Source of the DNA: Ruminococcus flavefaciens
GTDB lineage: Bacteria > Bacteroidota > Bacteroidia > Bacteroidales > P3
DNA length: 64,000 nt
Direction of reading: 5' to 3'
Assembly: GCA_023667315.1 (NCBI GenBank)
Contig: JAMPAI010000009.1
Location: 1 to 64,000 of the forward strand
This document shows, piece by piece, positions 44,537 to 63,779 of this stretch. The notes under the pieces were generated by a model. That model worked only from the letters and a program-made list of their open reading frames with translations. It had not been told where the DNA came from and did not search any database. The stretch's first letter is position 1, and each line of letters begins with the position of its first letter. The position numbers were made by a program, and so were the translations under genes.

Positions 44537-47500
44537 ATGAAAAAGGTACTTTTATCTTTGGGCATGACGCTTGCGCTCTGTTTTACAGGCAAAGTGACTG
44601 CACAACATGCGTTCGTTTCCGCATCGGAAACCTCCGAGAGCAATCTGGAATACCGCCTTATGGACGCGTTCCAGGGAGCCAATGTAAACGCGATTCCCTT
44701 CGAATCTCAATCCGGTCTGGCCGAATATACCGATTTGGCCAAAAAGATGGATGTTTCGGTAAAGCTGCGCCCCCTTTCCGAGAACCGTGCGCTGCAAAAC
44801 GCGTTCAAGGCCGGAAAACGGAAAGCCGGTACCGAAGCCAAGGCCTCGGTAGCCGAACTGAACGTGGACACCGTTATCAAACAGCCGTACTGGGGGCTTA
44901 TCAGCGCCGCCGAAGACGGCAGGCAGCTGATCTTCGTGGTGGAATACAGAGAACACCCCAACAGTTCGTTCTATGTTAACGGAGCCACCTACACATTTTT
45001 CGACGACGACATGAAGCAGCTCTGCTCCTTCAGCCTCGAAACACCTGAATTTACACAGTCGATAAGCTTGATGTCCAACTACTCGACCCGATTCTTCAAC
45101 AGCGATGCCAAGAAGGAATTCATGGTGGCGGTGCACAGTTTCGCCACGCAGGGCGGCGGTCCGGAAGCCTGCCGCGACACGCTGTTCATCATTAACGAAA
45201 GCGGAGAGACAATCGGCAAGTTCGGGCATACCGGCGGTGGCCTGCTGCACAGTTTCGAAAGGAACGGAAGCACCCAGTACCGCGTTCAGCTTAACGACGC
45301 CTTCTATTCCGATTTGGACAGCATCATGTATTCCTATATCTATGATGCGAAAAAGCTGTTGAGCGCCAAGCCCGACACCCTCTACACCTTCGCCATTCCC
45401 GAAGACCTTACCACCTACAGCAACGGTGCCCTGGCCGCCTTTACCCAGATCGACGGCGAGCCCTACTACATCACCACCCAGTATCAGAAACCCTTCGTGA
45501 AGGATGGCGTGCACAACGACACCGTTATCGACGTAGAGAAAGACAACCTGTTCGAGATCTTTATCTACGACATGGATTTCGAGTTGGTAAAGAAGATACA
45601 GCTTCCCCTGCTCGGCATGGAGAAGAACGACCTGAGCATGAGCACGCTCATGTATTTCGGCAAGTACATGATCACCCGCCATACCTTTAACAGCGACGAC
45701 AAGTTCGAGCTTATCTACGGCATGGACCGCTACGACATAAGCTGCGACTGCGGCAAGATTCAGTTCTACCTGATGGACGAAGACGGCAATACCCTCCGGG
45801 AAATCGCCGACGAGGTGGCCTTGGTAACCGAACTGCAGGGCCTGATAGGGCAGGAAGACGAGTTCGCGCTCTGCCTGGGCTCCGAAGACGCGGTGGAAGC
45901 CATCGTGATGTTGAACCTGCCTTCGTTCAACAGTAACTTCACTTTTCCCGCCATCCACGAGAACGAGTTGCTTTCGATGAATTTCGAACGTGTTCCCGAC
46001 GTGAACGGCGGCTATAACTACGTGTTCGGCCTGGGTCGAGGCGAAACGGTAAACAACACCGTGATGGGCAATATCGTTTACTATAACCTTCAGGGCAAGG
46101 CGGTAAAGCGTGTGCGTATAGACCTTGGATACGATGTGCAGTATTTCCAGCCCATCATCAACAGCCTTACGATGAACCCCTACGTGTTCGTGCCCGACGA
46201 ACAGCAGGAATACCTCTACTTCTACCGCTTTACCAAGGGTTCGGCCGCAGGCCGGGGCTTCGGCATCGCCAACGAGAACGAAACGCTCTACAAATGGCAG
46301 GACAACGACACGGACGGCAGCTTCTCGAGCGCCGGCGTGCTTACCGACGCCACCTCCACCGTTCTGAAGAACCTCTACATTTCCTGGGAGAGCGAAACCG
46401 AGGCGAAGACCGTTTTCTACACGCTGCCCCTCCGGAACATTGAGCTGCAGGGCAAGGGCACGAAAGCCGAACCCTACATCATCACCACGCCGGCCGAGCT
46501 CGACCTGGTGCGCAACTATCCGGAAGCCTGGTTTATCCTGGGCAACGACATCGACATGGCGGCCTTTACGGGCGTGAACCAGCAGGGTTTCACCTCCATT
46601 CCCAAGTTCAGCGGCCACTTCGACGGCAGGAACCACTTTATCAAGAACATCGTGATCAACGGCTACGGCCTGTTCAAGGAATTGAGCGGCGCCACGGTTT
46701 CCAACCTCTTTATAAGGAACGCGGTCTTCTCGAACGCGAAATCGAACGCGGGCGTTATTGCCGGCAACGACTCCAACAGGAGCCGGATCACGAACTGCCA
46801 TGTGGAAAGCGACCTGAATATCAGCGCCGATAAAGTGGGCGGTCTCGTGGGTCAGGCCGTGAATTACGCTTCCATAGACCGTTGCAGCTTTACGGGTAAC
46901 ATTTCCGGAAACTCCGAGAATGTAGGCGGTATAGCCGGTTATATAACCACCGGAGTCACCGTGGCCAACTGCTTGGTAAAGGGTTCGGTATCGGGAGCCA
47001 TGACCGTGGGCGGCCTTGTGGGGCTTACCTACAGCGGCGCCACGGTCAACAACAGCTATGCGGACGCTTCGGTATATGCGAGTGCGTATCAGGCGGGCGG
47101 CCTTGTGGGCGAGAACAACGGACAGGTGACCCGCACCTACGCCGCCGGGAAAGTGGAAGTGGACAGTTTTCCCCAAAACAAGTGGAATAAAGGCAAGGCG
47201 GGCGGTCTGGCCGGCGAAACCATAACGGGTATGTTCAACGGTCAGGTAAAGTATTCGGTGGCCTTGAACGACACGGTGATCGCCCCCGAGCACGCCTACC
47301 GCGTGGCCTATGCCGAAGGCTACAGGGACGCGAACGAACTGAAATACATGGATTCGGTCTATGCCCTGGCCTCGATGAAGGTGGGTTCCCGGAAAAATTC
47401 AGCCACGGTAAGCGACGACAACTGTGCGAAAGACCGCGCCAACGGCGAGTCGGGTACGCGCGAGACCTTCAACAAGGCGTTCTACGAAAGCCTTGGCTGG

Positions 47501-48568
47501 CAGTTCGGCAACGACTCGGCGCATCCCTGGCAGATGACGGGCGATATGCCCCGCCTGTGGTTCGAGTTCAGCGTGCGCGGCGTGGAAATCTCGAGTAAGG
47601 CAGCCTCGGTAGCCAAAGGCTCCACCATCACGCTTGCCGCCAATGTCATTCCGCAGGAAGCCACGAACAAGACGGTTATCTGGAACTCCACCAGCCCCTT
47701 GGTGGCCATGGTTGACCAGCAGGGCGTTGTAAAGGGCATGAACGCCGGCACGGCCACCATTACAGCCACCACGGCCGATGGCGGCTTTGTGGCCTCCTGC
47801 GAGGTAACCGTGGTTATTCCGGTAGAACAGGTCGTTCTGGCCGAAAAGGAAATCTTCCTTACCCTCGGCACCACCACGGCCATCAAATACTCCGTGCTTC
47901 CTGAAGATGCCACCAACAAGAACGTGTTGTTCCTCTCGCTGAATCCCGCCATAGCCCTTACCGGCGGTCCCGCCGTATATGGAGTTGAAGAAGGCACGAC
48001 CCAAATCGTGGCCGTTTCCGAAGACGGCGCGGCCTCCGATACCTGTACCGTTTATGTGCAGGTGCCCATTACCGGCATTGTGCTCAACAAGAGCGAGATA
48101 ACGCTCGACAAGAAGACCCCCTCCTTCCAGCTTACGGCCATCATTTATCCGGAAGAGGCCGCGAACACGCCCGTGGTGTGGAAAACCGCCAATGCCTCGA
48201 TTGCCATGGTTACCGACAAAGGCCTGGTTACCGCCGGCAGCAAGGGGCAGACCGTTATTACCGCCAACTCGCAAGACGGCCGCATTTCCGCCCCCTGCGT
48301 GGTAACCGTAACCGAAAACGTATCGAACCAAGGCGATGTGCAGAACATGGTGCTTGCCTATATGCAGAACAACAACATCGTGGTAACGGCATCCTGCGGC
48401 ATGGAATGGGTCAAGGTGTATAACCTGTCCGGCCAGTGCGTGGCCAGCCGACATGCCAAGGGAGCCGAAACCCTCACGGTGCCCGCCGCCGACATGCCTC
48501 AGGGCGTTTATCTGCTGCAGATAGGCCTTGCCGGCAACAAGACGGTAAACACAAAGGTTATCAGATAA
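44537..48568 (+). CDS. large secreted GLUG/BIG2 repeat protein with T9SS-type tail
   Basis: The product is 1343 residues from MKKVLLSLGMTLALCFTGKVTAQ (signal peptide). Residues about 60-640 are a beta-rich region with no recognised family. Residues 735-880 contain GLUG-like repeats (KVGGLVGQAV, NVGGIAGYIT, TVGGLVGLTY, QAGGLVGENN spaced 24-35 residues). Residues 1013-1260 are three BIG2-type Ig-like domains (VAKGSTITLAANVIPQEATN, then GTATITATTADG). The C-terminal ~75 residues (WVKVYNLSGQCV... GVYLLQIGLAGNKTVNTKVI) are a T9SS type A sorting domain, so it is probably exported and surface-attached. It heads the adhesin-like cluster but shares no interior with the next four genes. Confidence 0.85.
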   Translation: MKKVLLSLGMTLALCFTGKVTAQHAFVSASETSESNLEYRLMDAFQGANVNAIPFESQSGLAEYTDLAKKMDVSVKLRPLSENRALQNAFKAGKRKAGTEAKASVAELNVDTVIKQPYWGLISAAEDGRQLIFVVEYREHPNSSFYVNGATYTFFDDDMKQLCSFSLETPEFTQSISLMSNYSTRFFNSDAKKEFMVAVHSFATQGGGPEACRDTLFIINESGETIGKFGHTGGGLLHSFERNGSTQYRVQLNDAFYSDLDSIMYSYIYDAKKLLSAKPDTLYTFAIPEDLTTYSNGALAAFTQIDGEPYYITTQYQKPFVKDGVHNDTVIDVEKDNLFEIFIYDMDFELVKKIQLPLLGMEKNDLSMSTLMYFGKYMITRHTFNSDDKFELIYGMDRYDISCDCGKIQFYLMDEDGNTLREIADEVALVTELQGLIGQEDEFALCLGSEDAVEAIVMLNLPSFNSNFTFPAIHENELLSMNFERVPDVNGGYNYVFGLGRGETVNNTVMGNIVYYNLQGKAVKRVRIDLGYDVQYFQPIINSLTMNPYVFVPDEQQEYLYFYRFTKGSAAGRGFGIANENETLYKWQDNDTDGSFSSAGVLTDATSTVLKNLYISWESETEAKTVFYTLPLRNIELQGKGTKAEPYIITTPAELDLVRNYPEAWFILGNDIDMAAFTGVNQQGFTSIPKFSGHFDGRNHFIKNIVINGYGLFKELSGATVSNLFIRNAVFSNAKSNAGVIAGNDSNRSRITNCHVESDLNISADKVGGLVGQAVNYASIDRCSFTGNISGNSENVGGIAGYITTGVTVANCLVKGSVSGAMTVGGLVGLTYSGATVNNSYADASVYASAYQAGGLVGENNGQVTRTYAAGKVEVDSFPQNKWNKGKAGGLAGETITGMFNGQVKYSVALNDTVIAPEHAYRVAYAEGYRDANELKYMDSVYALASMKVGSRKNSATVSDDNCAKDRANGESGTRETFNKAFYESLGWQFGNDSAHPWQMTGDMPRLWFEFSVRGVEISSKAASVAKGSTITLAANVIPQEATNKTVIWNSTSPLVAMVDQQGVVKGMNAGTATITATTADGGFVASCEVTVVIPVEQVVLAEKEIFLTLGTTTAIKYSVLPEDATNKNVLFLSLNPAIALTGGPAVYGVEEGTTQIVAVSEDGAASDTCTVYVQVPITGIVLNKSEITLDKKTPSFQLTAIIYPEEAANTPVVWKTANASIAMVTDKGLVTAGSKGQTVITANSQDGRISAPCVVTVTENVSNQGDVQNMVLAYMQNNNIVVTASCGMEWVKVYNLSGQCVASRHAKGAETLTVPAADMPQGVYLLQIGLAGNKTVNTKVIR

Positions 48569-48595
48569 TTGCCTTTAAACAAAAGGCAGAACGGA

Positions 48596-48630: not shown

Positions 48631-48661
48631 CCCCGTCCCGACCTTGTCTTTCCTTAATATA

Positions 48662-48692
48662 TTGTATATGTGATTGTAATTTATTATCTTTG
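48662..48692 (+). promoter_or_regulatory. shared 31-bp promoter, copy A
   Basis: TTG, 20 bp, then TATCTTTG. The spacer starts TATATGTGATTGT and ends TTTATTAT, as in the copies at 52558, 56757 and 60535. Confidence 0.85.
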
Positions 48693-48698
48693 TCGGTT

Positions 48699-48716
48699 AA
48701 TGAGAAAAGACTCATT
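48699..48716 (+). repeat. leader hairpin, copy A
   Basis: AATGAG and CTCATT are separated by a 6-base loop and begin 6 bp after the -7 element, so at the 5' end of the mRNA. The segment GAAACTTACTAATT follows at 48721-48734, outside the hairpin. Confidence 0.5.
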
Positions 48717-48765
48717 CTACGAAACTTACTAATTCACTAAATACAAACCAAAAAAATCTTTTAGA

Positions 48766-51700
48766 ATGAAGAAGTTACTCTTCTCGAGCCTCACGGCTCT
48801 AACGATGCTCTTCTCGTTTGTCGGCATGGCCAAGGCTGATACTGGCGATGCTGCGACAACGGCGAAAGCCAAAGTAAAAGTGGAGTTGTCTCCCGCCACC
48901 TTCAAGTCAGGGGCCACCGAAAACCTCCCCGAGTTCACTGTTTCCATTACGCAGGCGCCTGCCGAAACGGGCGGCGAAAGCGTTGATCCTCAAGCCGAAA
49001 ACGACATCGTTTTGGGTACGGCCGAAGGCAACGTGGCTGTAAAGGTAAGCTTTAAGAAAGGCGAGACCGAAAAGACGCAGGTTCTCACCTCTACTCCGGT
49101 CGATTTGGCCATCACCGACCTTACGGAAGGCGAATGGACGTTGGCCTATGTCCTGGTGAAAGGCAACGAAAACACCGCCGATTTCGAGGGTGATGCCGAG
49201 ATGGACGATGCCTCCACCGACAAGTTGACCGTGGAAGCCGCCGCTCCCGCCGAAACCAAACCCGACACGGTTACCGTAACACTTAGCACGGACAAATGGG
49301 AAATGGGCAAGCAAATGAGGCCTACCGTCAACGTACAGATTAAGAATGTTGCCCCCAGCACGCTCAAGATCGGTAAGACGGAAAGCGATGTGGCGGTGTT
49401 GGTTACATTTACGAAAGGCGAAGAAACGCCGATAAAGAGGATCTTTACCGGAAGTGCAAGCCTTCTTGCCGCCCAGACCGATAGCATGACCGTCGGCGAC
49501 TATGCCATCACCTATCAGCTGGTAAAGGGAAACTCCACGGACGCCAGTGTTACGAATATCGAGGCCTCGGTAGCGGTTGTATCCGCCGGCTCGGCCAGCA
49601 AGTTTACCGTGGAACAAGGCACGGTGGCCACCCCGACCTTCACCAAGGAAGAAGGAGCCGTTGACGAAGGTACGGAAGTAAGGATTAAAACCTCCACCAA
49701 CGGTGCCAAGATTTACTACACCACCAACGGTGATGCTCCCACCGAATCCAGCACGGAATACACAACCCCCGTTGTCGTTAACCAAGCCATGACCATCAAG
49801 GCCATCGCCGTTAAGGAAGGTTGGAAGAACTCGGCCGTTGCCGAAGCCGCCTACACGATTGCCGAGCTTCCCGCTGATGCTGAAGACGCGCCCGCAATCA
49901 CCCTGAGTCCCGCCCCCGCCGACAGCGTGGACAACAACACCGAAATCTTTATTACCGCCCCCGCCGGCTACAAGGTTTATTATATCTCCTTCTCCTCCAT
50001 AAGCGAAGCTGCAGAGTTTGTTGAAATGTTACCCCATCTTCCTTCCTCGGCACTCGCTTACTATATGCAGGCCTATGGAACGAACATTCCCACCGTTACC
50101 GATGAGGCCCCCATTCTTGGAATCGTTCTTGTGGGTGATGACACCTACACGTATTGCCGCCGCTACAAGGTGCGTAAGGGCAGCGATGTGGAGATGCCGT
50201 ATTTCATGACGGAATTCGGCGCACGGAGTGGCGTGGTTGACAAAGGCACGGAACTGAACATTGTTCAGGATGAAGAACTCGATATCTGGTACACCACCGA
50301 CGGTTCGACACCCGCCGTTAACGGCGCCACTTCCACGAAAGGCGAGGGTATAGCCAAGATCAAGATCGATTCTTCGATGACGGTAAAGGCCATTGCCGTT
50401 ACCGAAGACGGGGAAACCTCCGATGTGGCCGTTGCCCGGTTCAAGATTTTCGAAGACGTGGAAGCCACGCTTGCCATTGATGGAAATATGGTCGTGATGA
50501 AAGGTGATACGGTAGGCAAGAACATTGCACTGCCGTTTTCCATAGAAAGCGCCGATTTAGGAAACGAACTGCAGGATTTGCTGTATGAACATCCTTTTAC
50601 GGTGTATTACACCACCGACGGCAAGACCGAACCTTCGGAAGACGAATACTATGAATTGAAGGCCAAGGATTCCGCCAACAATCCCATCAAGATGGCAGCT
50701 ATGGAAACCGATGAGTATGGAGACATTATAATGCCTTCCGTGTTGCTTTCCGAAAGTCCTGTAACCCTGAAGGCAAAGGGTTACCTGATGTTGGGCGAAA
50801 CCTCGGAAGAAGGCATGCTTGTTACAGCCACACTCACCAAGACCTTTGTCCTTAAAGAAGAACAGCGTCCCGAATTCAGCATTTCTTCCGGCAGCGAAAT
50901 CAAGGCGGGCGACACCCTTACCGTTAAGAATCCCGGCACGGAAGAGCTTGCTTCGACAATGTACTTCAGCTTCGATGGAACGCAACCCTCGCAAGATGCG
51001 TATTTTGCGATAGATTGGAATGGTGTTTACAATATTTTCAAGACCAACGAAGGCGAAGACCTCAAGATAATCTTCGGTAAAGACGCCAAAGGCATGTATG
51101 CCCACGTTCCGGCCATCTACGAACTCCTTTACAAGCAGGATACCATACGCTTCGAGGAAGAATTCTCCGTGGAAGTGATTTGCTACTCTGCGATAGAAAC
51201 CGGAAACTATAACATGATGGGCCGTCCTGAAATGTTCCAATACGCTTCCGATTTCGTGAAAGCCGGATACACGGTGATGAACGACCTTCCCAAGCCGGTG
51301 ATCACGCCTAATGGCGGTGCGGTGGCCAAGGGAACGAAGGTTGAGATTGCCTCGACCCACCCGGGTGCCCAGATCTACTACTCGATCAACGCCGACACGG
51401 TAACGGCCAACAGCGCGCTGTATGTAGCCGCCGACGGCATCATCATCGACAAAGACAGCATCACCGTCCGCGCCATCGCGGTCAAGAAGACCGAAGGCAA
51501 GGCCGACTCGGTGTCGAACATCGCCGAAGCCTTCTTTACGCTGATGGATACGGTGAAGGCTCCCGTAATCACCCCCAACGGCGGTGAAGTGGAAAAGGGC
51601 ACGAAGGTAACGGTGGCCTGTGCCACCGAAGGCGCGATTGTACGCTACACGACCGACGGCAGCGAACCGACGGCCACCAGCAACGAATATGACGCCGAAA

Positions 51701-52311
51701 CGGGCATCGTGATCAACGAAGCGCTCACGCTTAAGGTGATGGCCGTAAAAGAAGGCATGATCAACTCGCAGGTGGTAAGCGCCGAGTTTACGGTAAAGGC
51801 CGCTCCCATCGTGGAAAAAGACACCTTGCCTATGCCCAAGTTCAGCGTGGCCGCGGGCGAAGTGAAGGAAGGCACGAAAGTGGCGCTGAGCTGCGACACG
51901 GCTTCCGCGAAGATCTACTACACGGTAGATGGCAGCGTTCCGACGGAAAAGAGCACGGAATACAAGGGCGAGATCACGATCGACAAGGCGATGACGATCA
52001 AGGCGATCGCGGTGAAGGAAGGCTTTGTAAGCTCGAAGGTTGCGGAAGCGGCCTACACGATCGAAACGGCCAACGAAGGCCGTGAGCTTGCGGGCGTGCG
52101 CCTGTACCCGAACCCGACGGACGGCAACTTCAGCGTGGAAGCCCCGGTGGCCGCCAAGGTGGAAATCTTCAGCGCCAACGGCGTGATCGTGAAATCGTTC
52201 ACGATGGCTGCCGGCGTTGAGGAAGTACGCCTCAATAACAGCGGCATCTACTTCGTACGCCTCACGGCCGAAAACGGCCAGGCAGCGGTAAAACGCGTAA
52301 TCGTACGGTAG
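48766..52311 (+). CDS. mosaic T9SS surface protein 1 (CHB_HEX_C-like repeats)
   Basis: The 1181-residue protein has signal peptide MKKLLFSSLTALTMLFSFVGMAKA. Two related N-terminal modules (about 25-155 and 160-280) contain a W-x-L-x-Y-x-L-V-K-G motif. Chitobiase-C-terminal-type repeats of about 80 residues follow (at about 285-368, 480-560, 842-926, 930-1011, 1021-1100), each with I-Y-Y-T-T-D/N-G-x-x-P-T and T-I/V-K-A-I-A-V-K. The T9SS type A sorting domain (LAGVRLYPNPTDGNFSVEAP to the end) covers about 1103-1181. It is probably a surface adhesin or structural protein; glycan binding is only a possibility. The start is fixed by the signal peptide shared with three neighbours. Confidence 0.85.
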   Translation: MKKLLFSSLTALTMLFSFVGMAKADTGDAATTAKAKVKVELSPATFKSGATENLPEFTVSITQAPAETGGESVDPQAENDIVLGTAEGNVAVKVSFKKGETEKTQVLTSTPVDLAITDLTEGEWTLAYVLVKGNENTADFEGDAEMDDASTDKLTVEAAAPAETKPDTVTVTLSTDKWEMGKQMRPTVNVQIKNVAPSTLKIGKTESDVAVLVTFTKGEETPIKRIFTGSASLLAAQTDSMTVGDYAITYQLVKGNSTDASVTNIEASVAVVSAGSASKFTVEQGTVATPTFTKEEGAVDEGTEVRIKTSTNGAKIYYTTNGDAPTESSTEYTTPVVVNQAMTIKAIAVKEGWKNSAVAEAAYTIAELPADAEDAPAITLSPAPADSVDNNTEIFITAPAGYKVYYISFSSISEAAEFVEMLPHLPSSALAYYMQAYGTNIPTVTDEAPILGIVLVGDDTYTYCRRYKVRKGSDVEMPYFMTEFGARSGVVDKGTELNIVQDEELDIWYTTDGSTPAVNGATSTKGEGIAKIKIDSSMTVKAIAVTEDGETSDVAVARFKIFEDVEATLAIDGNMVVMKGDTVGKNIALPFSIESADLGNELQDLLYEHPFTVYYTTDGKTEPSEDEYYELKAKDSANNPIKMAAMETDEYGDIIMPSVLLSESPVTLKAKGYLMLGETSEEGMLVTATLTKTFVLKEEQRPEFSISSGSEIKAGDTLTVKNPGTEELASTMYFSFDGTQPSQDAYFAIDWNGVYNIFKTNEGEDLKIIFGKDAKGMYAHVPAIYELLYKQDTIRFEEEFSVEVICYSAIETGNYNMMGRPEMFQYASDFVKAGYTVMNDLPKPVITPNGGAVAKGTKVEIASTHPGAQIYYSINADTVTANSALYVAADGIIIDKDSITVRAIAVKKTEGKADSVSNIAEAFFTLMDTVKAPVITPNGGEVEKGTKVTVACATEGAIVRYTTDGSEPTATSNEYDAETGIVINEALTLKVMAVKEGMINSQVVSAEFTVKAAPIVEKDTLPMPKFSVAAGEVKEGTKVALSCDTASAKIYYTVDGSVPTEKSTEYKGEITIDKAMTIKAIAVKEGFVSSKVAEAAYTIETANEGRELAGVRLYPNPTDGNFSVEAPVAAKVEIFSANGVIVKSFTMAAGVEEVRLNNSGIYFVRLTAENGQAAVKRVIVR

Positions 52312-52351
52312 TATCCTCCATATCTCCAGGGTAAAACCCCTTGGAAAGCAA

Positions 52352-52387
52352 AAATCCCGTCAGGCAACCGCCTGGCGGGATTTTTTT
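52352..52387 (+). terminator. terminator of surface protein 1
   Basis: AATCCCGTCAGGC pairs with GCCTGGCGGGATT, followed by T7. A weaker hairpin (CCAGGG/CCTTGG-type, 52326-52344) precedes it. The same terminator recurs after surface proteins 2, 3 and 4. Confidence 0.9.
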
Positions 52388-52416
52388 ATCCCCATCGTTT
52401 GGGGTGTCTCACCCCC

Positions 52417-52440
52417 GTGGATAGCCGTGAAAATAAGAAC
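52417..52440 (+). repeat. 24-bp element, copy 1
   Basis: GTGGATAGCCGTGAAAATAA followed by GAAC. It lies between the terminator of surface protein 1 and the promoter of protein 2, and continues directly into ACCATTCGG. Confidence 0.85.
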
Positions 52441-52590
52441 CATTCGGGTTCAGGAACATTCTGTTCACGGCACGCCTTTATGATCCGTTTTGCCCCGAAC
52501 CCCAGTTTTCAAGAAAGGTAGTTGCGGCATCCTGAAAAATCATTTGGAAGAAAGGTTTTGTATATGTGATTGTGTTTTATTATATTTGCC
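52436..52590 (+). repeat. duplicated upstream region, copy b
   Basis: About 155 bp closely matching 56638-56790, including the string TTCTGTTCACGGCACGCC, the string ATGATCCGTTTTGCCCC and the shared promoter. Both copies lie just upstream of a surface-protein gene. Confidence 0.85.
52558..52588 (+). promoter_or_regulatory. shared 31-bp promoter, copy B
   Basis: TTG, 20 bp, then TATATTTG, with the same spacer pattern (TATATGTGATTGT then TTTTATTA) as copy A. Confidence 0.85.
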
Positions 52591-52592
52591 AT

Positions 52593-52647
52593 GCTCCGGC
52601 AGTTTGTGTTTAGTGAGTGAGTTCTTGAGCATCATGATTGCCGGAGC
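52593..52647 (+). repeat. leader hairpin, copy B, with inverted leader segment
   Basis: GCTCCGGCA (52593-52601) pairs perfectly with TGCCGGAGC (52639-52647) and starts 4 bp after the -7 element. The loop segment 52601-52627 is, on the reverse strand, closely similar to the leader AACTCACTAAATACAAACT at 60571-60589. Confidence 0.75.
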
Positions 52648-52699
52648 TTATTTGAAGAAACAGCGTACCCTATAATTATTAACCAAAAAATTTTTTAGA

Positions 52700-55654: not shown

Positions 55655-55680
55655 GTCCCCAAGCTTGGAGTCTTACCCTT

Positions 55681-55704
55681 GTGGATAGCCGTGAAAATAA
55701 GAAC
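55681..55704 (+). repeat. 24-bp element, copy 2
   Basis: GTGGATAGCCGTGAAAATAA followed by GAAC, identical to copy 1; 54 bp before copy 3. Confidence 0.85.
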
Positions 55705-55734
55705 TTGCTGATTCAATTGGTTTTAAGTTCCAGT

Positions 55735-55756
55735 GTGGATAGCCGTGAAAATAAGA
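55735..55756 (+). repeat. 24-bp element, copy 3 (at the ATPase fragment boundary)
   Basis: GTGGATAGCCGTGAAAATAA followed by GA, where homology stops. The next base is the first of the TTA that encodes the stop codon of the minus-strand ATPase fragment. Confidence 0.85.
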
Positions 55757-56641
55757 TTAAGCGTAAAACGGCACGTACGTGGAATATTTCTTAGAATCGG
55801 AACCCTCATCGGCTGATTTTATTAATCCGGCAACCACTGTATCGGCAAGGATTCGGGTTGCCGTAGGTGCTTGATTTTTATTAAGTCCGAATCTTGTACG
55901 TATCGATTGATTGCTGATGGGAGCATTGTCTTCCCACATTAGGCACGCATGTTGATAACAGGCTTCGATTCTTTCCTTTTTTGCCATTTTAGCCAAAGGC
56001 TTGGGAGGATATAAGGTAACTCGGGTGTAGTCTTCAAGGTTTTGAAATTTAACCGGAGGTAAAAGCATGCTTTCAACAGCTTTTACAGCCCTATCCACCC
56101 CGCTTCCCCGGCGTTCACATATTCGAAGCAGGAGCATGGCCTGTGCAAGTTTTTCGTTTCGGGAACGAGGTGGCATATCGATCAATCGGTTTATGTTGTT
56201 CAATGTGGCTCCGGGATTGGTGATAACAAGTCGGTTATTGAAAATTTCGACGGCTATGGGGGAACCCTCTATGGCAAAATCTTGATGAATCAAGGCATTT
56301 GCCAGGAATTCCCGGATGGCTACCTGAGGGTAAATGGGCAAAAGTTCCCGGGAAACGCTTATTTGTTCCTTTCCGGTATGAGACATGATATAGTCGATCA
56401 GACCTTTAAAACCGGCGGCATAACCATGCATATCGTGATAGTCGTGCAAAAGTTGTTGGTTGTTGGAGCCTGCATATATTCGTACAACAACTTCACGACC
56501 GCATAAGGCCGGGAAATCATTAAAATCTTTTGCGAATAGAATGGCTCCGAGATTAGTGATTGTCCATCCTTCTTTTTCTTTTCGACAAAACCCGTATTCT
56601 TTCAAAGTGTCCAAGATGGCATCTGTCGATAAAGGGACCAT
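55757..56641 (-). pseudogene. 5'-truncated AlbA_2/RecG-like ATP-binding protein
   Basis: The 294 residues match the C-terminal two-thirds of a common bacterial ATP-binding (Schlafen AlbA_2 plus HATPase_c_4) family. Visible are ITNLGAILFAKDF, the GHKL-type ATPase N-box AIREFLANALIHQDF, ITNPGATL, the CERRGSGVDRAV motif, and a winged-helix end finishing YSTYVPFYA. Full-length members have about 450-550 residues, so the N-terminal AlbA_2 domain is missing. Its left end abuts the 22-bp repeat copy 3 and its right end abuts ACCATTCGG, exactly the two sequences that are contiguous at 52430-52448. It looks like a gene fragment inserted at the element. It is less GC-rich than the surrounding genes. 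Confidence 0.75.
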
Positions 56642-56790
56642 TCGGATTCCGGAACATTCTGTTCACGGCACGCCTTTATGATCCGTTTTGCCCCCGAGCC
56701 CCAGTTTTCAAGGAAGGTGGTCACGGCATTCTAAAAAATCATTTGGAAGAGATGTTTTGTATATGCGATTGTATTTTATTATCTTTGCTG
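56638..56790 (+). repeat. duplicated upstream region, copy c
   Basis: Counterpart of 52436-52590, starting at ACCATTCGG and running through the shared promoter. It has small differences (for example CGATTG for TGATTG within the promoter). Confidence 0.85.
56757..56787 (+). promoter_or_regulatory. shared 31-bp promoter, copy C
   Basis: TTG, 20 bp, then TATCTTTG, with the same spacer pattern as copies A and B. Confidence 0.85.
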
Positions 56791-56792
56791 TG

Positions 56793-56848
56793 CCCCTGGG
56801 TGGTTTGTATTCAATTAGTAAGTTTCGAAAATCAGATTTGCCCGGGGG
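56793..56848 (+). repeat. leader hairpin, copy C, with inverted leader segment
   Basis: CCCCTGGG (56793-56800) pairs with CCCGGGGG (56841-56848) with one U-G pair, starting 5 bp after the -7 element. The loop segment 56802-56826 is the reverse complement of the copy A leader (GAAACTTACTAATT... ATACAAACC, 48721-48749) apart from a 4-base gap. Confidence 0.75.
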
Positions 56849-56897
56849 TTTATTAAAAAGACAGAACCTAATTTATTAACCAAAAAAAATTCTTAGT

Positions 56898-59800
56898 ATG
56901 AAGAAGTTACTATTCTCGAGCTTCACGGCTCTAATGATGCTCTTCTCGATGTTCGGCCATGTCCGGGCGCAAGGGACGAGCGAAACGGCAAAACCCAGTA
57001 TAGCATTGCTTTCTCTGGCGATGGATGAACTTACAGACAATGCAGAAATCAGTAAGTACGTTCCTATTACCGTGTCTATCATGGAGGGATCATCCGAATA
57101 CGATTATGAGACGGCAGATGTTTACTACACAATTAATGGCGGCGATATTGAGCCCACGAAAGAAAACTTTACGGCAGACGGTCCCGTTAAGAAGATCACT
57201 GTCGATGGAGGAATGAATCAGGGCGGTATCGAAGTTAATGTTAACGGTACGGAAATAACAGTAAAAGCAAAGGCATACATCACTGTAGCAGGAGAAGACG
57301 CCGAAGTTGTTACAGATGTTAAGACAGTATCGTTGAAACTTAAACATCTGGATGCTCCTCAATTTGAACAGGCTTCCGGTTCGACGATAAAGATGGGAAA
57401 TGCGGTAAAGCTTACCGGTATTCCTGAAGATGCGCATGTTTTTTATTCAACTACAGATGTTCTTCCTGCCATGTTGAATTATGGCCAAGTGGCCGGTATA
57501 GAGCCGTATGACGAAAATGGAGGTATCGTTATTACAGAAAATGTAACCATCAAGGCTATCGCATGGGCAGAAGATGACGATTTAGTCTTTGTGGCTTCGG
57601 ATATGGTAACGGCTTCCTATACGGTGCAGAAACCCCAGGTAACCGTTGCCTTGAGCGCCACCGCCTGGAGTGAAGGCGAAGACGCCCCCAAGGTAAGCGT
57701 TACGCCCGAGGAAGGCATTGAAATCGGTGCTCTGGCCGACGGTAAGGTGGCCGTAAAGGTGGACTTGTTCAAGATGGACGCCTATCCCGAAGAAACAGCG
57801 GTTCAGTATATCACCGCAACCGGTGAAACGGCGTTGGAAACGGAAAAACTGACCAAAGGCGTATGGTTTTTATCCTACACGCTTGTTAAAAAAGAAGAAG
57901 ATAAGGAAGTTGTATTCGACGGTGCCGAAATCAAGGTCGCCGAAGACGATATGTCGCTTACGGTGGGCGGCGCGGAAAACAGCCTTGTTTTAAGCGTACA
58001 GTTCAAGCCGGCGAAGTGGGAAATCGGTTCCGAAGCCCCCTTGATGGTTATGGCCGGCATCACCAACGACGACAACCTTTCTTTCGGCACGGACGACGAC
58101 AACAGCGAAATCGTCGTGCTGATCACCTTTACCAAAGACAGCGAAATCAAGAAGTATCTTTTAACGCAGTCGTTTGGCGAAATCGATCCTGAAGAACTGG
58201 GATTGACCGAAGGAACCTGGGAAGTAACCTATAAGGCGGGTAAAGCCACTTCCACCATCGAGAACTTCACCGAACTGGAACGTACGGTGGAAATGGCGAC
58301 GACCACGACCACGAGCATAGAGATCGTTGCGGCAACGGTGCTCGAGCTGACCTTTGATCCCGCTCACAACGCCGAGGTTAAAAGCGGCGATACGATTACC
58401 ATTACGGCCAACGTGGACGATGTAAACATCTATTTCTGCACCTATGCAAGTAAGGATGCTGCAGAAAAAGACGATACCCTCAATATTGTTAGGAACGGTA
58501 TCAGGTACGGTGAATTCGACGAAGATGACGACGAGGTGGGCAAGCCTATCGTTACCTCTACCAAACCGGTGGTTAAGGCTGGCGTGAATGTAGGTGACGA
58601 ATGGCAGTTCTTCTATGCCGTTTATGATATTGAATCGACCGAGCCCGAAATCACCCTGTACTTTGTTGACGAGACCTTCGGCAAGAACTTCCCCATGGAA
58701 CTCAACATCGAATGTGAGGAAAACCCAGCCTACGAACGCGCCGACTTCCATGTTTACTACACCACCGACGGTTCCGAACCTTCTGAAGAAGCCTACAAGG
58801 CCCAGGGCGCTGCCGGCGGCCCGGTTAAGATGACGGGCTACTACCAGGACAAAGACGGTGCCTGGATCTATCCCACCATCACGCTTTCCGCCTATGCAAC
58901 GGTAAAGGCCGTGGCCACCGTAAAGGTCGGCACCGACAAGACCATCGCCACCTCGATGATCACCAAGGAATTCAATGCCGAAAACTTCCAGGTCTTGGCC
59001 AAGAACCCCGCTTTCAGCGAAAGCGCGCAGGAAGTGGCCAAAGGAACGAAGGTAAAGATCAACGTTGAAAAACCGGAAGGCTTGACATCCGACCAGATGT
59101 TTATCGTTAACTATACGCTGGACGGTTCCGACCCGCTTGAAGAACGCTTGCTGAACGACATGAGCGGCGACATGCAGGATGTCATCAAATCCTACGACTA
59201 CGAAAACGAAGAAGAAATCACCATCGACTCCAACACGACCATCAAGGCCATCGCCTATGTAATATGGTACGGTGGCGGGATGATGAAATATGAAGATGAA
59301 TACGGCTACGGTTCCGACATCGTGGAACACACCTACCTTATCGCCAAAGACATTGCCATGCCGGTGATCACCCCCAACGGCGGCGAAGTCAAGAAGGGAG
59401 ACACCATTAGGCTCAGCGCTGCCGAAGGCGCCAGGATCTACTACTCGATCAACGCCGATACGGTAACCCCCAACAGCACGCTGTATGTTGCCGCCAACGG
59501 TATCGTCATCGACAAAGACACCACCACCGTCCGCGCTATTGCGGTCAAGAAGACCGAAGGCCAGTCCGACTCCGTGTCGAACATCGCCACGGCCACGTTC
59601 ACGGTTAAGAAAGACACCGTGGCCGCTCCCAAATTCAGCGTAGCGGCCGGTTCGGTGGAAAAAGGCACGAAAGTCCGCATTACCTGCGACACGGCCGGTG
59701 CCGACATCTACTACACCGTAAACGGCGGTAACCCCACGGTGGCCAGCACCAAGTACGAGGACGAAATCTCGATCGACAGCAACATGACCATCAAGGCTGT

Positions 59801-60359
59801 CGCCATCAAGGCCGGTTTGGTAAACTCGGCCATCGTTACGGCAGCCTACACGCTTAAGGGCGACGAACCCGAAAAGGACACCGTGGCCGCTCCTACCTTC
59901 AACCACAGGGACGGCGACAAGGTTAAGGTGGGCGACAGCGTGGTGATAAGCTGCGTTACCGAAGGCGCCGAAATCTTCTACGCCCTCGACACGGCTTCCA
60001 CGTTCGTTAAATACGAAAGCGCCATCAAGGTTACCAAGGCCGTTGCCGTAAAGGCCTACGCCAAGAAGGGTGAAGCGATTTCCGACACCGTTAAGGTTGC
60101 CCTTGTTATCGACAACACTGCCAACGAAGGCAAGGAATTGGCCGGTGTGAGCGTATATCCCAACCCGAGCGACGGCCGTTTCAGCGTAAGCGTGCCCGTA
60201 AACGCGGTGGTTGAAGTGTTTGCCGCCAACGGCCGGATGATTAAGCGCGTAAACGTATCCGCCGGCGAAAACGCGATGCAGCTCGACAACGCGGGCGTAT
60301 ATTTTATCCGCGTACGCGCCAACGGTCAGGAAACCGTAAAGAAAGTGGTTGTACGATAG
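56898..60359 (+). CDS. mosaic T9SS surface protein 3
   Basis: The 1153-residue protein has signal peptide MKKLLFSSFTALMMLFSMFGHVRA. The N-terminal 250 residues hold two chitobiase-C-like units unlike those of the neighbours and less GC-rich. Residues about 250-475 hold two modules related to the N-terminal modules of proteins 1 and 4 (TKGVWFLSYTLVKKE, TEGTWEVTYKAGK). At least three standard repeats lie at about 820-1070 (NGGEVKKGDTIRLSAAEGARIYYS, AAGSVEKGTKVRITCDTAGADIYYT, GDKVKVGDSVVISCVTEGAEIFYA). The T9SS sorting domain (LAGVSVYPNPSDGRFSVSVP) at about 1075-1153 is the most divergent of the four. Probably surface-exposed. Confidence 0.85.
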   Translation: MKKLLFSSFTALMMLFSMFGHVRAQGTSETAKPSIALLSLAMDELTDNAEISKYVPITVSIMEGSSEYDYETADVYYTINGGDIEPTKENFTADGPVKKITVDGGMNQGGIEVNVNGTEITVKAKAYITVAGEDAEVVTDVKTVSLKLKHLDAPQFEQASGSTIKMGNAVKLTGIPEDAHVFYSTTDVLPAMLNYGQVAGIEPYDENGGIVITENVTIKAIAWAEDDDLVFVASDMVTASYTVQKPQVTVALSATAWSEGEDAPKVSVTPEEGIEIGALADGKVAVKVDLFKMDAYPEETAVQYITATGETALETEKLTKGVWFLSYTLVKKEEDKEVVFDGAEIKVAEDDMSLTVGGAENSLVLSVQFKPAKWEIGSEAPLMVMAGITNDDNLSFGTDDDNSEIVVLITFTKDSEIKKYLLTQSFGEIDPEELGLTEGTWEVTYKAGKATSTIENFTELERTVEMATTTTTSIEIVAATVLELTFDPAHNAEVKSGDTITITANVDDVNIYFCTYASKDAAEKDDTLNIVRNGIRYGEFDEDDDEVGKPIVTSTKPVVKAGVNVGDEWQFFYAVYDIESTEPEITLYFVDETFGKNFPMELNIECEENPAYERADFHVYYTTDGSEPSEEAYKAQGAAGGPVKMTGYYQDKDGAWIYPTITLSAYATVKAVATVKVGTDKTIATSMITKEFNAENFQVLAKNPAFSESAQEVAKGTKVKINVEKPEGLTSDQMFIVNYTLDGSDPLEERLLNDMSGDMQDVIKSYDYENEEEITIDSNTTIKAIAYVIWYGGGMMKYEDEYGYGSDIVEHTYLIAKDIAMPVITPNGGEVKKGDTIRLSAAEGARIYYSINADTVTPNSTLYVAANGIVIDKDTTTVRAIAVKKTEGQSDSVSNIATATFTVKKDTVAAPKFSVAAGSVEKGTKVRITCDTAGADIYYTVNGGNPTVASTKYEDEISIDSNMTIKAVAIKAGLVNSAIVTAAYTLKGDEPEKDTVAAPTFNHRDGDKVKVGDSVVISCVTEGAEIFYALDTASTFVKYESAIKVTKAVAVKAYAKKGEAISDTVKVALVIDNTANEGKELAGVSVYPNPSDGRFSVSVPVNAVVEVFAANGRMIKRVNVSAGENAMQLDNAGVYFIRVRANGQETVKKVVVR

Positions 60360-60395
60360 TATAGCCACCGCATTTCCAAGGGCTCAAGCCCTTCA

Positions 60396-60432
60396 AAAAT
60401 CCCGCCAGGCGATTGCCCGGCGGGATTTTTTA
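60396..60432 (+). terminator. terminator of surface protein 3
   Basis: AATCCCGCCAGGC pairs with GCCCGGCGGGATT, followed by a T-run; same design as the neighbouring terminators with base changes. Confidence 0.88.
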
Positions 60433-60467
60433 TTCTCTCCCATGTTTCTTGGGGGCATTCTTTTTCC

Positions 60468-60491
60468 GTGGATAGCGATGAAAATAAGAAC
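60468..60491 (+). repeat. 24-bp element, copy 4 (variant)
   Basis: GTGGATAGCGATGAAAATAA followed by GAAC, differing from copies 1 and 2 at two adjacent bases. It lies upstream of the promoter of surface protein 4. Confidence 0.8.
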
Positions 60492-60534
60492 TTGAATCCG
60501 AAAAATTCACGCCAGGGGATGGAGGAGATAGTTT

Positions 60535-60565
60535 TTGTATATGTGATTATCTTTTATTATTTTTG
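60535..60565 (+). promoter_or_regulatory. shared 31-bp promoter, copy D
   Basis: TTG, 20 bp, then TATTTTTG. The leader after it is only about 40 bases, lacks a GC-rich hairpin and carries AACTCACTAAATACAAACT in forward orientation (60571-60589). Confidence 0.8.
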
Positions 60566-60605
60566 TATTCAACTCACTAAATACAAACTCAAAAAACTTT
60601 TCATT

Positions 60606-63600
60606 ATGAAGAAGTTACTTTTTGGGGGCTTCACGGCCCTGATGATGCTCTTCTCGCTGGTCGGCTTTGTCCGGGCAGAAGACAAGGCCAAGGTGACGGT
60701 TTCGGTTGAAGGAGCCTGGATTATAGGGAGCACGCCCCTTCCTAAATTTACCGTTGCAATAGAACAGATTAGCGAAAATGACGCAGACCAGATCGTAATG
60801 GGCACGGGTGCCGGAAATCTGGCGGTAGAGGTTACCTTTGCCAAAGAAGCCGCCTCTACCCAAGATGGAGATGCCGATCAGGCCAAAACACAGATTCTAA
60901 CGGCCAGGAACCCCAATGTAGATATCACCGGATTGGATGCCGGCACATGGAACCTTACCTACAGGTTGGTAAAGGGCGAAGCCCCCACTACCGCTTTCGA
61001 CGGCAATGCAGAATTGACGAATACAACGCCTTCTGTCCTTACCGTTAGCGAAGCCCCTGTGGTAACCTTTACCCCTTCGCCGGAAAACCCGGTTCAGGAA
61101 GGAACGGAAATTACCATTGGCGCTCCTTCCGAAGCTTTAATGGTAACGTGGTCCCTTTATAAGGATCAGGCGGCCGCCGATGCCGATGACTATCCAATCC
61201 CCAATATGTATCCGGAATCCAAACCCGTTGTCTCTCTGGAAGAACAATATCTTAGGGTGACGGTAACGATTAACAGTAAAAGAATTGTTTATAACGCCAG
61301 TTACACGGTAACCGAAGCCGCCGTTAAGGCGCCCGTTTTCGAACCTGTTGCCGGTATTGTGAGCAAGGCTACGGATATCAAGATTACCGCTGCCGACGGT
61401 GCCGACATCTGGTACACGCTTGATGGTACGGAACCTGAAGCCGACGCAACCAAAGCCACGAAATATACTGAAGCCTTCAGGCTTACAGAAGCCTGCACGG
61501 TAAAGGCCATCGCCGTAAATGGTAACGATAAGTCGGCCGTGGTGAGCGCCGCCTATACCTTGATAGAAGACAGCGATGCGGAACTGGATTTCGACACGGT
61601 GGCAGCCAAGAACTATCCTATCATGATGTCCATTAAAACGGAAAATTACACCATAATGGACGCGGAATACGATGTTTACTATACCACCGACAGAAGGACG
61701 ACTCCCAGCAAGGAAGCCTTCGAAAGGAACCCCGACAGCACCATCAAGAAAACGGGTTACCATCTGATTCCCACGGATGATGGATGGGGCCGACGCGTAT
61801 ATGCGTATGCCGTTATGGAATCGAACGACACGCTTAAGGCGCAGGTCTATCTGACGATCAACAATGTGGAAATGCCCCTTCCCTTGGTGAAACGCGCCGT
61901 TCGGGTAAACTCCATTCCCGCCCCCAGAGCCAGCGTGGAATCAGGTTTGGTGGAAGCCGGCACCAAGATGGTGCTTAAGAGCGATTCCTCGGCGGCCGTC
62001 ATTTACTACACGGTAGATGGAACGGAGCCTCTTTACGAACGTATATTGGAAAATCAGGAACTTTTATATGACGGGACAATATCGGTTTGGTCTGACACGA
62101 GAATGGACGGCGGCGACACCATCGTGATTACGAAAGATACCGTGATCAAGGCCATCGCCTATATCGAAAACAGCGGTGTGGGCGGTTTTGCAGGCAACGG
62201 CACGCCCAAAGACGGCGAACCGGCCGGTTCGAGCGTGGTGGAATTCCGCTACACCGTTAAGCAGGCCCAGACCGCTCCCGCGCTGACGCTCAGCCCCGAC
62301 GGCTCGGCTTCCGTAAAGGCGGGTACGGAAATCACGGTTTCCCGCTCCGCCTCTGCCCCCCAAACGGGCTATATCGCCTATAAGTTCTATGCCGACTCAG
62401 CCTCGGCCAAGGCCGACAACAACTTTATGAGTTGGTACGAAGGTGCCGGTTTCTACGATGAATACGAAGGCAAAGACAAGCCCGTGCTTACGCAGGAACT
62501 TCCGGTAATCGCCATCGGCATTACCGACGACGGCAACGGTGACGCCGCCTACTGGCAGGTTGACCCGATTATCGTTAAATACACCGTAACCGAAGGCGAT
62601 GCCGAAGAAGGCGTTGTATTGACGTTCGATCCCGAGGGCAATGCCAGGATGGATATTTTCGGTTCCTCGCCCGTGGTGCTTATGGAAGGCGACACGGTAA
62701 CCATCACGCCTTCCGACGATGCGAAGGGCACCATCTACTACGTGTTCAGCGGCTCGACCCTGGAGGGCGGCGATCTGCTGGAGACCGCCAAGACCGATGA
62801 GATGGATGCCGCGGTAAAGGTATATGACCCCGCCAACAAGCCCACGCTTCCCTACAAGACACAAGGCGCGGAAGACGGCCTCTGCTTCCTCTGCGCCATC
62901 TTCAGGGGCGAAGACGGCGAATGGTCGAAGATGCATTCGGCCAACTACGAGGTAACCTCCTCCTTCTCCCTGACCATACCCCAGCCCGTGTTCACCCCCG
63001 CCGCCGGCGAGTACACCGACAGCGTGTATGTTCAGATTACCTGCTCGGATCCCAACTTGGAGATCGTATATGCGTACGGTTACGATATGGTTCAATTTCC
63101 CGACAAGACCTATTATCCGAAAGATTCGGTAGGTTTCAAGGGGCTGCTGGTTAAATCGACCACCGAGATCTATGCGCGTACGGTATCCCGCCGCGACACC
63201 AATTCTTCGTGGGAGCATTCGCCGCTGGTAACCGCCAAATACACGATCAAGAAGAGTGAAGACCCCGAAGCGGAAATGGACACTCTGCCTATGCCCAAGT
63301 TCAGCGTGGCCGCGGGCGAAGTGGACAAGGGCACGATGGTAACTTTGAGCTGCGACACGACCGGTGCCAAGATCTACTACTCGATCAATGCCGACACGGT
63401 AACGGCCAACAGCCAGGAATACACCGCCGCCATTGCCATCGACAGCAACATGACCATCCGCGCGATCGCGGTGAAGGAAGGCTTCGTAAGCTCGGCCATC
63501 GCCGTGGCGGCCTATACGGTGAAGGAAGAAACCTCGGCCAACGAAGGCCGTGAGCTTGCGGGCGTGCGCCTGTACCCGAACCCGACGGAAGGCAACTTCA

Positions 63601-63779
63601 GCGTGGAAGCTCCCGTGGCCGTGAAGGTGGAAATCTTCGCCTCGAACGGCGTGATCGTGAAGGCCTTCACGATGTCTGCCGGCGTTGAGGAAGTACGCCT
63701 CAATAACAGCGGCATTTACTTCGTACGCCTCACGGCCGAAAACGGCCAGGTAGCCGTAAAACGCGTGGTGGTACGATAG
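60606..63779 (+). CDS. mosaic T9SS surface protein 4
   Basis: The product is 1057 residues from MKKLLFGGFTALMMLFSLVGFVRA; an upstream in-frame ATG at 60468 lies within the 24-bp element and is rejected. The N-terminal module (KAKVTVSVEGAWIIGSTPLPKFTVAIEQ... GTWNLTYRLVKGEA) is related to that of protein 1. The middle repeats are its own. Residues about 672-884 (DNA 62619-63256) are nearly identical to protein 2, and the end (FSVAAGEVDKGTMVTLSC... LAGVRLYPNPTEGNFSVEAP) follows the protein 1/2 pattern with a few extra residues before the T9SS domain. It thus combines a protein 1-like start with a protein 2-like end. Surface role inferred. Confidence 0.85.
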   Translation: MKKLLFGGFTALMMLFSLVGFVRAEDKAKVTVSVEGAWIIGSTPLPKFTVAIEQISENDADQIVMGTGAGNLAVEVTFAKEAASTQDGDADQAKTQILTARNPNVDITGLDAGTWNLTYRLVKGEAPTTAFDGNAELTNTTPSVLTVSEAPVVTFTPSPENPVQEGTEITIGAPSEALMVTWSLYKDQAAADADDYPIPNMYPESKPVVSLEEQYLRVTVTINSKRIVYNASYTVTEAAVKAPVFEPVAGIVSKATDIKITAADGADIWYTLDGTEPEADATKATKYTEAFRLTEACTVKAIAVNGNDKSAVVSAAYTLIEDSDAELDFDTVAAKNYPIMMSIKTENYTIMDAEYDVYYTTDRRTTPSKEAFERNPDSTIKKTGYHLIPTDDGWGRRVYAYAVMESNDTLKAQVYLTINNVEMPLPLVKRAVRVNSIPAPRASVESGLVEAGTKMVLKSDSSAAVIYYTVDGTEPLYERILENQELLYDGTISVWSDTRMDGGDTIVITKDTVIKAIAYIENSGVGGFAGNGTPKDGEPAGSSVVEFRYTVKQAQTAPALTLSPDGSASVKAGTEITVSRSASAPQTGYIAYKFYADSASAKADNNFMSWYEGAGFYDEYEGKDKPVLTQELPVIAIGITDDGNGDAAYWQVDPIIVKYTVTEGDAEEGVVLTFDPEGNARMDIFGSSPVVLMEGDTVTITPSDDAKGTIYYVFSGSTLEGGDLLETAKTDEMDAAVKVYDPANKPTLPYKTQGAEDGLCFLCAIFRGEDGEWSKMHSANYEVTSSFSLTIPQPVFTPAAGEYTDSVYVQITCSDPNLEIVYAYGYDMVQFPDKTYYPKDSVGFKGLLVKSTTEIYARTVSRRDTNSSWEHSPLVTAKYTIKKSEDPEAEMDTLPMPKFSVAAGEVDKGTMVTLSCDTTGAKIYYSINADTVTANSQEYTAAIAIDSNMTIRAIAVKEGFVSSAIAVAAYTVKEETSANEGRELAGVRLYPNPTEGNFSVEAPVAVKVEIFASNGVIVKAFTMSAGVEEVRLNNSGIYFVRLTAENGQVAVKRVVVR
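62619..63256 (+). repeat. 638-bp block shared with surface protein 2
   Basis: Counterpart of 54431-55068, equal length and collinear, with scattered substitutions only. Confidence 0.85.

What the first reader, a model, noticed from the sequence alone, without database searches (positions are those of the whole stretch)
44537..63779. Five large T9SS-exported repeat proteins in a row, four of them a mosaic family
Four adjacent genes share signal peptide, promoter, terminator, chitobiase-C-terminal-type repeats and T9SS sorting domain but have differing interiors. Protein 4 pairs a protein 1-like N-terminal module with a protein 2-like C-terminal half, and protein 3 carries the module in its middle. 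This looks like modular shuffling within an array of surface proteins, possibly an antigenic-variation or ligand-diversification locus. The arrangement is seen directly; the diversification role is inference.
Basis: partly seen in the sequence, partly recalled or inferred. Interest (0 to 1): 0.75.

Follow-up and report, generated by a model that had tools for sequence, protein, structure and literature searches.

The report
Mosaic array of exported surface proteins
A Bacteroidales bacterium carries four neighbouring genes for large exported proteins that share pieces with each other and with copies elsewhere while keeping the same export signals at both ends; this is a clear case of a known kind of surface-protein shuffling, and what the proteins bind is not known.

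Summary
Five T9SS type A cargo genes lie head to tail. P0 (44537-48568) is an older gene of another kind, with orthologues beside the same downstream gene in two congeners. P1-P4 (48766-63779) are one family: same signal-peptide start, promoter core, chitobiase-type repeats and sorting tail. Their divergence is blockwise. P2 and P4 share a block at 92% nucleotide identity (dS 0.24); just upstream they barely align (dS 2.0) and P4 instead matches C22a, a gene on another contig (dS 0.81). A permutation test puts the break at P4 residue 671 (0 of 10000). P1 and P2 share 134 identical bases; P3's tail is of another paralogue's type. The P1-P4 stretch (about 15 kb) is absent in those two congeners. 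Its spacers hold pieces of AlbA_2-type genes and a 22-bp sequence, echoing the intact layout at C22, so I infer tandem amplification of such a unit. One other species (G010) clearly shows shared tails with different interiors. No silent cassettes, slippage tracts or dN/dS excess were found and no inverted repeats lie close round the promoters, so switching antigenic variation is not supported; strains could not be compared. New member of a known kind (compare P. gingivalis gingipain/HagA modules).

The parts
44537..48568 (+). P0: large T9SS type A cargo (1343 aa; Big_2, GLUG, sorting tail); has orthologues in congeners; not a member of the mosaic family
   Evidence: 63% (G010) and 58% (G003) over the full length
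48766..52311 (+). P1 (1181 aa): N-N-CHB-FPD-CHB-LNG-LNG-CHB-CHB-CHB-TAIL after the signal peptide (module names mine)
   Evidence: relative in G010 C168, 41% over 1205 columns
52700..55579 (+). P2 (959 aa): KFY-KFY-FPD-FPD-B24-CHB-TAIL after the signal peptide
56898..60359 (+). P3 (1153 aa): LNG-CHB-N-N-KFY-LNG-LNG-CHB-CHB-CHB-TAIL after the signal peptide; tail of the C7 type
   Evidence: tail 84% nt to C7 by blastn, 82% over 82 codons; trees
60606..63779 (+). P4 (1057 aa): N-FPD-CHB-LNG-LNG-KFY-B24-CHB-TAIL after the signal peptide
54431..54982 (+). Recently shared block in P2 (residues 578-761), 92% nt identical to P4 62619-63170; dS 0.24
62619..63170 (+). The same block in P4 (residues 672-855); breakpoint at about residue 671
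61563..62597 (+). P4 residues 320-664, closest to C22a on contig C22 (76% nt, dS 0.81), not to P2
51988..52121 (+). 134 nt identical to P2 55256-55389 (end of the last CHB repeat and start of the tail)
48653..48692 (+). Promoter-core repeat before P1; copies before P2 52549-52588, P3 56748-56787, P4 60526-60565
   Evidence: D6
52338..52405 (+). Terminator repeat after P1; copies after P2 55604-55671 (87%) and P3 60383-60450 (63%)
   Evidence: D7
52440..52523 (-). Relic of an AlbA_2 gene between P1 and P2, 94% nt identical to nt 1044-1128 of the intact gene at C22
56638..56721 (-). The same relic between P2 and P3 (94%)
55757..56641 (-). Shortened gene of another AlbA_2-type protein (294 aa, HATPase_c_4 match only, no AlbA_2 match) between P2 and P3
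52417..52438 (+). 22-bp sequence GTGGATAGCNRTGAAAATAAGA; further copies 55681-55702, 55735-55756, 60468-60489; no others in the held genome with up to 2 mismatches
48640..63885 (+). Approximate extent of the stretch absent between P0 and the TPR gene in G010 and G003 (right border by a 64-bp 89% match; left border only weakly defined)

Best explanation
P1-P4 are a lineage-specific tandem array of T9SS-exported proteins made of chitobiase-C-terminal-type repeats. The array arose by amplification of a unit like the one still seen at C22 (cargo gene, convergent AlbA_2 gene, next cargo gene), with decay of the AlbA_2 copies. Homologous recombination (unequal crossing-over and gene conversion) between copies, in the array and on other contigs, has kept signal peptide, promoter and sorting tail alike while swapping or patching interior blocks. 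Shown: family membership, blockwise divergence, empty site in two congeners, AlbA_2 relics, the same pattern in G010. Inferred: export, recombination as the agent, order of events and donors, and a role as adhesins or glycan-binding proteins with a varied repertoire.
For: Blockwise divergence also at third codon positions: P4 as child of C22a/P2, 567 informative sites (247 at third positions), 0 of 10000 permutations reach either statistic, split at residue 671 or 672; dS 0.24 (P2/P4 block), 0.81 (P4/C22a upstream of it), 2.03 (P2/P4 upstream), 1.17 (P4/C22a in the block). 134-nt exact P1/P2 repeat. C22a/C22b tails 93% nt with different module orders. P3 tail grouped with C7 and G004 C11 (96/77, 93/82). 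G010: C14/C46 share the last 290 residues at 85% nt and no other stretch in the table; C168's interior groups with P1 (90/94) but its tail with C14/C46 (100/98 and 100/99). Empty site: P0 orthologue followed by the TPR gene after 160 bp (G010) and 104 bp (G003). AlbA_2 relics and the 22-bp sequence stand where C22 has the intact gene. T9SS gene sprA present.
Against: In the shorter tail region the third-position test is mostly weak: P2 as child of P4/P1, 769 and 7172 of 10000; P1 as child of P2/P4, 619 and 0 of 10000. P1-C168 interior support is just under the program's starred level. Tails are clustered by genome but not strictly: this genome's need 4 changes on the 33-row tree and 6 on the 36-row tree. 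No strain-level data. Draft genome of 88 contigs with 4.98% contamination, so an assembly fault is not fully excluded. Donor and recipient of the P2/P4 block are unresolved. No structure could be predicted; PDB sequence searches gave one match each at E 0.02 and 0.012, so the binding role is untested.
Confidence: 0.78

Rival explanations
1. A switching antigenic-variation locus: stored copies feed variable segments into an expressed gene, or promoters flip, within a strain.
For: Constant ends, variable interiors, adjacent paralogues, an exact 134-nt repeat that could serve recombination. Two short inverted pairs, 51868/53086 (15 nt, 93%) and 58895/60747 (12 nt, 100%), have arms in neighbouring genes and span the P2 and P4 promoters.
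Against: 4 of 4 genes have promoter repeat, start, signal-peptide start and tail; no inverted pair of 40 nt or more; the other 13 of 15 short inverted pairs are terminators, palindromes or lie within one gene, and 12-15 nt pairs in coding sequence may be chance (not tested against shuffles); no slippage tracts, the longest single-base runs being one T8 in a terminator and one A8 before P3; dN/dS 0.19-0.59 in blocks of 66 codons or more.
Confidence: 0.07
2. Plain tandem duplication followed by divergence, with sorting tail and last repeat kept alike by selection on export, and no exchange between copies.
For: Tails and last repeats are among the most alike parts; dN/dS below 1 in the blocks of 66 codons or more.
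Against: Synonymous divergence differs about eightfold between neighbouring blocks of one gene pair (0.24 against 2.03) and the best partner changes along the gene; selection on the protein does not make third positions alike.
Confidence: 0.1
3. The mosaic is an artefact of short-read assembly or of binning mixed strains.
For: Draft genome, 88 contigs, 4.98% contamination; family genes run off contig ends in congeners, such as G003 C55, C57 and C58.
Against: The longest exact repeat between copies is 134 nt, the next 82 nt; none of 30 nt or more lies at the P2/P4 border; both flanks keep synteny known from congeners.
Confidence: 0.05

Closest known systems
Porphyromonas gingivalis RgpA/Kgp/HagA adhesin modules (PMC5266723; abstract, outline and found passages seen)
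   Same: T9SS cargo with a conserved C-terminal domain and interchangeable adhesin modules in several paralogues; the authors report combinatorial modularity and invoke domain rearrangement, allelic exchange and gene conversion.
   Different: Modules there are cleaved adhesin domains and DUF2436, which did not match here up to E 0.01; no protease domain matched here; strains were compared there, none here.
Flavobacterium psychrophilum run of consecutive leucine-rich-repeat proteins (PMC8400371; found passages seen)
   Same: Adjacent repeat-protein genes (a 21-kb region) in a Bacteroidota species, varying in number between isolates.
   Different: LRR instead of chitobiase-type repeats; whether those LRR proteins have T9SS tails was not checked; the passages describe copy number and not interior mosaicism.
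Gene pair with an intact AlbA_2 gene at contig C22 of the same genome (149664-157916)
   Same: Same family, similar tails and promoter core, order cargo, convergent AlbA_2, cargo; C22a is collinear with most of P4.
   Different: Two genes, AlbA_2 gene intact, another place in the genome.

Membership tests
T9SS type A cargo | C-terminal sorting domain above the curated cut-off (TIGR04183) | tested here: met
   5 of 5 proteins, 29.1-47.8 bits against 23
T9SS type A cargo | T9SS gene sprA in the same genome | tested here: met
   G000:C77:78808-85788, 2474 bits against cut-off 200; other T9SS genes were not searched
T9SS type A cargo | Proteins are exported and the tail is processed | not testable with these tools
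   Needs proteomics; signal peptides were judged by eye only
CHB_HEX_C_1 (PF13290) repeat proteins | Repeats above Pfam's gathering score | tested here: met
   P1-P4, 59.5-271.8 bits against 22; P0 has none
Gene-conversion antigenic variation (silent cassettes plus expression site) | Promoterless partial copies beside one complete expressed gene | tested here: not met
   4 of 4 genes have promoter repeat, start, signal-peptide start and tail
Phase-variable surface loci | Slippage tracts in or before the genes | tested here: not met
   Three short 6-7-bp arrays of 2.1-2.7 copies; no C or G run of 7 or more, one T8 and one A8 between genes, no di- or trinucleotide runs
Phase-variable surface loci | Inverted repeats that frame an invertible promoter | tested here: inconclusive
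   None close round a promoter; two pairs of 12 and 15 nt with arms in neighbouring genes span the P2 and P4 promoters
Phase-variable surface loci | Different arrangements between strains or within a culture | not testable with these tools
Gingipain/HagA adhesins | Cleaved adhesin domains or DUF2436 | tested here: not met
   No such match up to E 0.01 in 5 proteins

The most novel reading that the evidence does not exclude
Across this Bacteroidales genus the family works as a genome-wide pool of surface proteins with fixed export ends: sorting tails are homogenised within each genome while interior binding modules are shuffled among array and dispersed copies, and the AlbA_2 gene with its 22-bp neighbour sequence marks or assists the recombining unit.
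Probability: 0.1. Interest if true: 0.65.

Novelty: new member of a known kind. Interest (0 to 1): 0.4.

Why it matters
It is a clean example of how an uncultured Bacteroidales lineage builds new exported proteins: export ends stay alike while interior blocks are traded between array and dispersed paralogues, with relics that suggest how the array was made. It makes a strain-level test of surface diversification easy to design, but the principle is known from P. gingivalis.

Tried and rejected
AlbA_2 and T9SS genes as a functional pair. In this genome 4 of the 7 places matched by the C22 AlbA_2 protein (the query's own place included) adjoin family genes: C22, C11, C7 and the window; the other three (C77, C44, C22:98326) have none by eye in the ORF list. 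One G004 copy (C21) adjoins a T9SS gene. Against a general link: G002 C15 and G005 C4 have none, and 0 of 7 loci from 6 genomes outside the genus (L100-L106) have a family tail or CHB match beside the gene, though 4 of these 7 contigs end within 1.3 kb of it. Two further G004 matches, three in G002 and one each in G001, G008 and G010 were not looked at. The binomial figure printed rests on assumed gene numbers and on copies related by duplication, so I do not use it.

Phage or mobile origin: a viral-contig scan with P2 found nothing; I saw no target-site duplication by eye at the empty-site borders. Named relatives of P2 in genome contigs: 12 pattern matches, none confirmed. Positive selection: not seen; of four 24-codon signal-peptide comparisons one gives dN/dS 1.11, too short to weigh. 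Foreign origin by composition: array GC 0.521 against 0.563 for window 1-44000, and GC3 0.64-0.67 against 0.75-0.89 for P0 and five neighbouring genes, suggestive but not used. My first tail tree left out three further tails of this genome that passed my bit-score filter; I repeated it with them, with the same main groups but more changes for this genome (6 against 4), and G003 no longer one group. Papers: the listings showed no description of this locus; only PMC5266723 and PMC8400371 were opened.

Full report
What is there. Five large genes run head to tail on the plus strand from 44537 to 63779. All five proteins carry a T9SS type A sorting tail above the NCBIfam cut-off, and the genome has sprA, a core gene of that secretion system. 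The first gene, P0, is of another kind: Big_2 and GLUG domains and no chitobiase-type match. P1-P4 form one family with CHB_HEX_C_1 repeats, the start MKKLLF and similar tails.

Where it lies. The window is bases 1-64000 of an 80-kb contig in a 2.93-Mb, 88-contig draft (98.9% complete, 4.98% contamination). Thirteen genomes of the genus are held, this one included. Habitat was not established; a search for the record names in papers gave nothing.

Module map. With profiles that I built from these proteins (names mine), the orders are: P1 N-N-CHB-FPD-CHB-LNG-LNG-CHB-CHB-CHB-TAIL; P2 KFY-KFY-FPD-FPD-B24-CHB-TAIL; P3 LNG-CHB-N-N-KFY-LNG-LNG-CHB-CHB-CHB-TAIL; P4 N-FPD-CHB-LNG-LNG-KFY-B24-CHB-TAIL. 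The profiles CHB, FPD, LNG and KFY overlap in what they match and were resolved by score, so they are types within one repeat group more than separate domains. The N-module likeness of P1 and P4 is 48% in protein, but no 150-nt window there exceeds 0.54 identity, so it is old.

Mosaic test. In 150-nt windows the best partner changes sharply along each gene. P4 residues 320-664 follow C22a, a gene on contig C22 (nt 0.76, dS 0.81); residues 672-855 follow P2 (nt 0.92, dS 0.24), where C22a is far (dS 1.17); just upstream P2 and P4 barely align (dS 2.03). A 3SEQ-like permutation test on this triple gives 0 of 10000 for both statistics, with all 567 informative sites and with the 247 third-position sites, and a best split at residue 671 or 672. 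P1 and P2 share 134 identical nucleotides at 51988 and 55256. In the tail region the test is low with all sites (P2 as child 21 and 5 of 10000; P1 as child 9 and 0 of 10000), but on third positions only one of four values stays low (769, 7172, 619 and 0 of 10000). Which copy gave and which received is not resolved: C22a also has a B24 module, so P2 may have received it from P4 or the reverse. In other species the interior of P4 finds only weak relatives (for example 35% in G010 C46, 32% in G008 C16); 70% identity over residues 295-1057 is found only in C22a.

Beyond the array. C22a and C22b, on either side of an AlbA_2 gene, have tails 93% alike but different module orders. P3's tail is 84% nt identical to that of C7 and groups with it and with a G004 gene (96/77, 93/82), apart from the tails of P1, P2 and P4. 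In G010, C14 and C46 share their last 290 residues at 85% nt and no other stretch in the table, which lists only matches of 100 nt and 72% or more; the interior of C168 groups with P1 (90/94, just under the program's starred level), but its tail groups with C14 and C46 (100/98, 100/99). On the 36-row tail tree six genome labels (31 rows; 5 rows without label) need 14 changes against a shuffled mean of 18.1 (0 of 200 as low); the 11 tails of this genome need 6 changes, and P1, P2, P4, C22a, C22b and C11 fall together (83/76). So tails tend to be alike within genomes, but not strictly, and near-copies alone raise such clustering.

How the array arose. In G010 and G003 a full-length P0 orthologue (63% and 58%) is followed after 160 and 104 bp by the TPR gene that follows P4 here, with the same two further genes behind it. 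P1-P4 are missing there. An insertion or expansion in this lineage is the simplest reading; losses elsewhere are not excluded. The closest relative by the upstream gene, G004 (91%), has no P0 match at E 1e-30 and a different order, so it does not decide; P0 relatives of G005, G006 and G007 lie on other contigs than their TPR genes. Between P1 and P2, and again between P2 and P3, lies an 84-85-nt antisense relic 94% identical to the AlbA_2 gene of C22. Between P2 and P3 a second AlbA_2-type gene is cut down to its C-terminal part, 55757-56641. A 22-bp sequence occurs four times in the genome, all in the array spacers, and with one extra base behind C22a. C22 has the order cargo, convergent AlbA_2, cargo; the P1-P2 and P2-P3 spacers keep that order with AlbA_2 pieces only, and the P3-P4 spacer has the 22-bp sequence but no AlbA_2 match. 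I infer tandem amplification of such a unit, followed by decay of the AlbA_2 copies.

What speaks against a switching locus. All four genes look complete, there are no slippage tracts, and amino-acid change is constrained in the blocks compared. No inverted repeat stands close round a promoter; two short pairs with arms in neighbouring genes do span the P2 and P4 promoters and were not tested against chance. The data fit slow diversification by homologous recombination better than programmed variation.

Function. Chitobiase-C-terminal-type and Fn3-associated repeats are Ig-like and common in exported Bacteroidota proteins (general knowledge, no call). PDB sequence searches of P1 and P4 gave one weak match each: a T9SS tail for P1 (E 0.02) and a beta-hexosaminidase segment for P4 (E 0.012). 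I take an adhesin or glycan-binding role as most likely (about 0.55), by analogy only.

Verdict. The locus is a good example of a known kind of evolution, described for P. gingivalis gingipain and HagA modules (PMC5266723; abstract, outline and passages seen).

Noticed in passing
52417-52438, 55681-55702, 55735-55756, 60468-60489: A 22-bp sequence found only in the array spacers (4 places in the genome with up to 2 mismatches); two of the four directly abut AlbA_2 pieces (at 52440 and 55757). Role unknown.
   Followed up: partly
55757-56641 (minus strand): A shortened AlbA_2-type gene that keeps only the HATPase_c_4 part, abutting an 84-nt relic of a different AlbA_2 gene.
   Followed up: yes
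43345-44379: The gene upstream of P0 matches NCBIfam NF052386 (lysine 5,6-aminomutase reactivase subunit KamB, 289.6 bits against 210); whether the aminomutase genes are present was not checked.
   Followed up: no
L026 (G000:C33:6013-20628): Another run of three large genes (1395, 1810 and 1211 aa) with T9SS-like tails ending in the same residues (GSIVKRVVVR), a second tandem array in this genome.
   Followed up: no
L035 (G004:C4:65837-73214): In G004 the TPR gene is followed by two other genes with related repeat and tail (52-53% to P1), so this neighbourhood carries such genes in more than one species.
   Followed up: no
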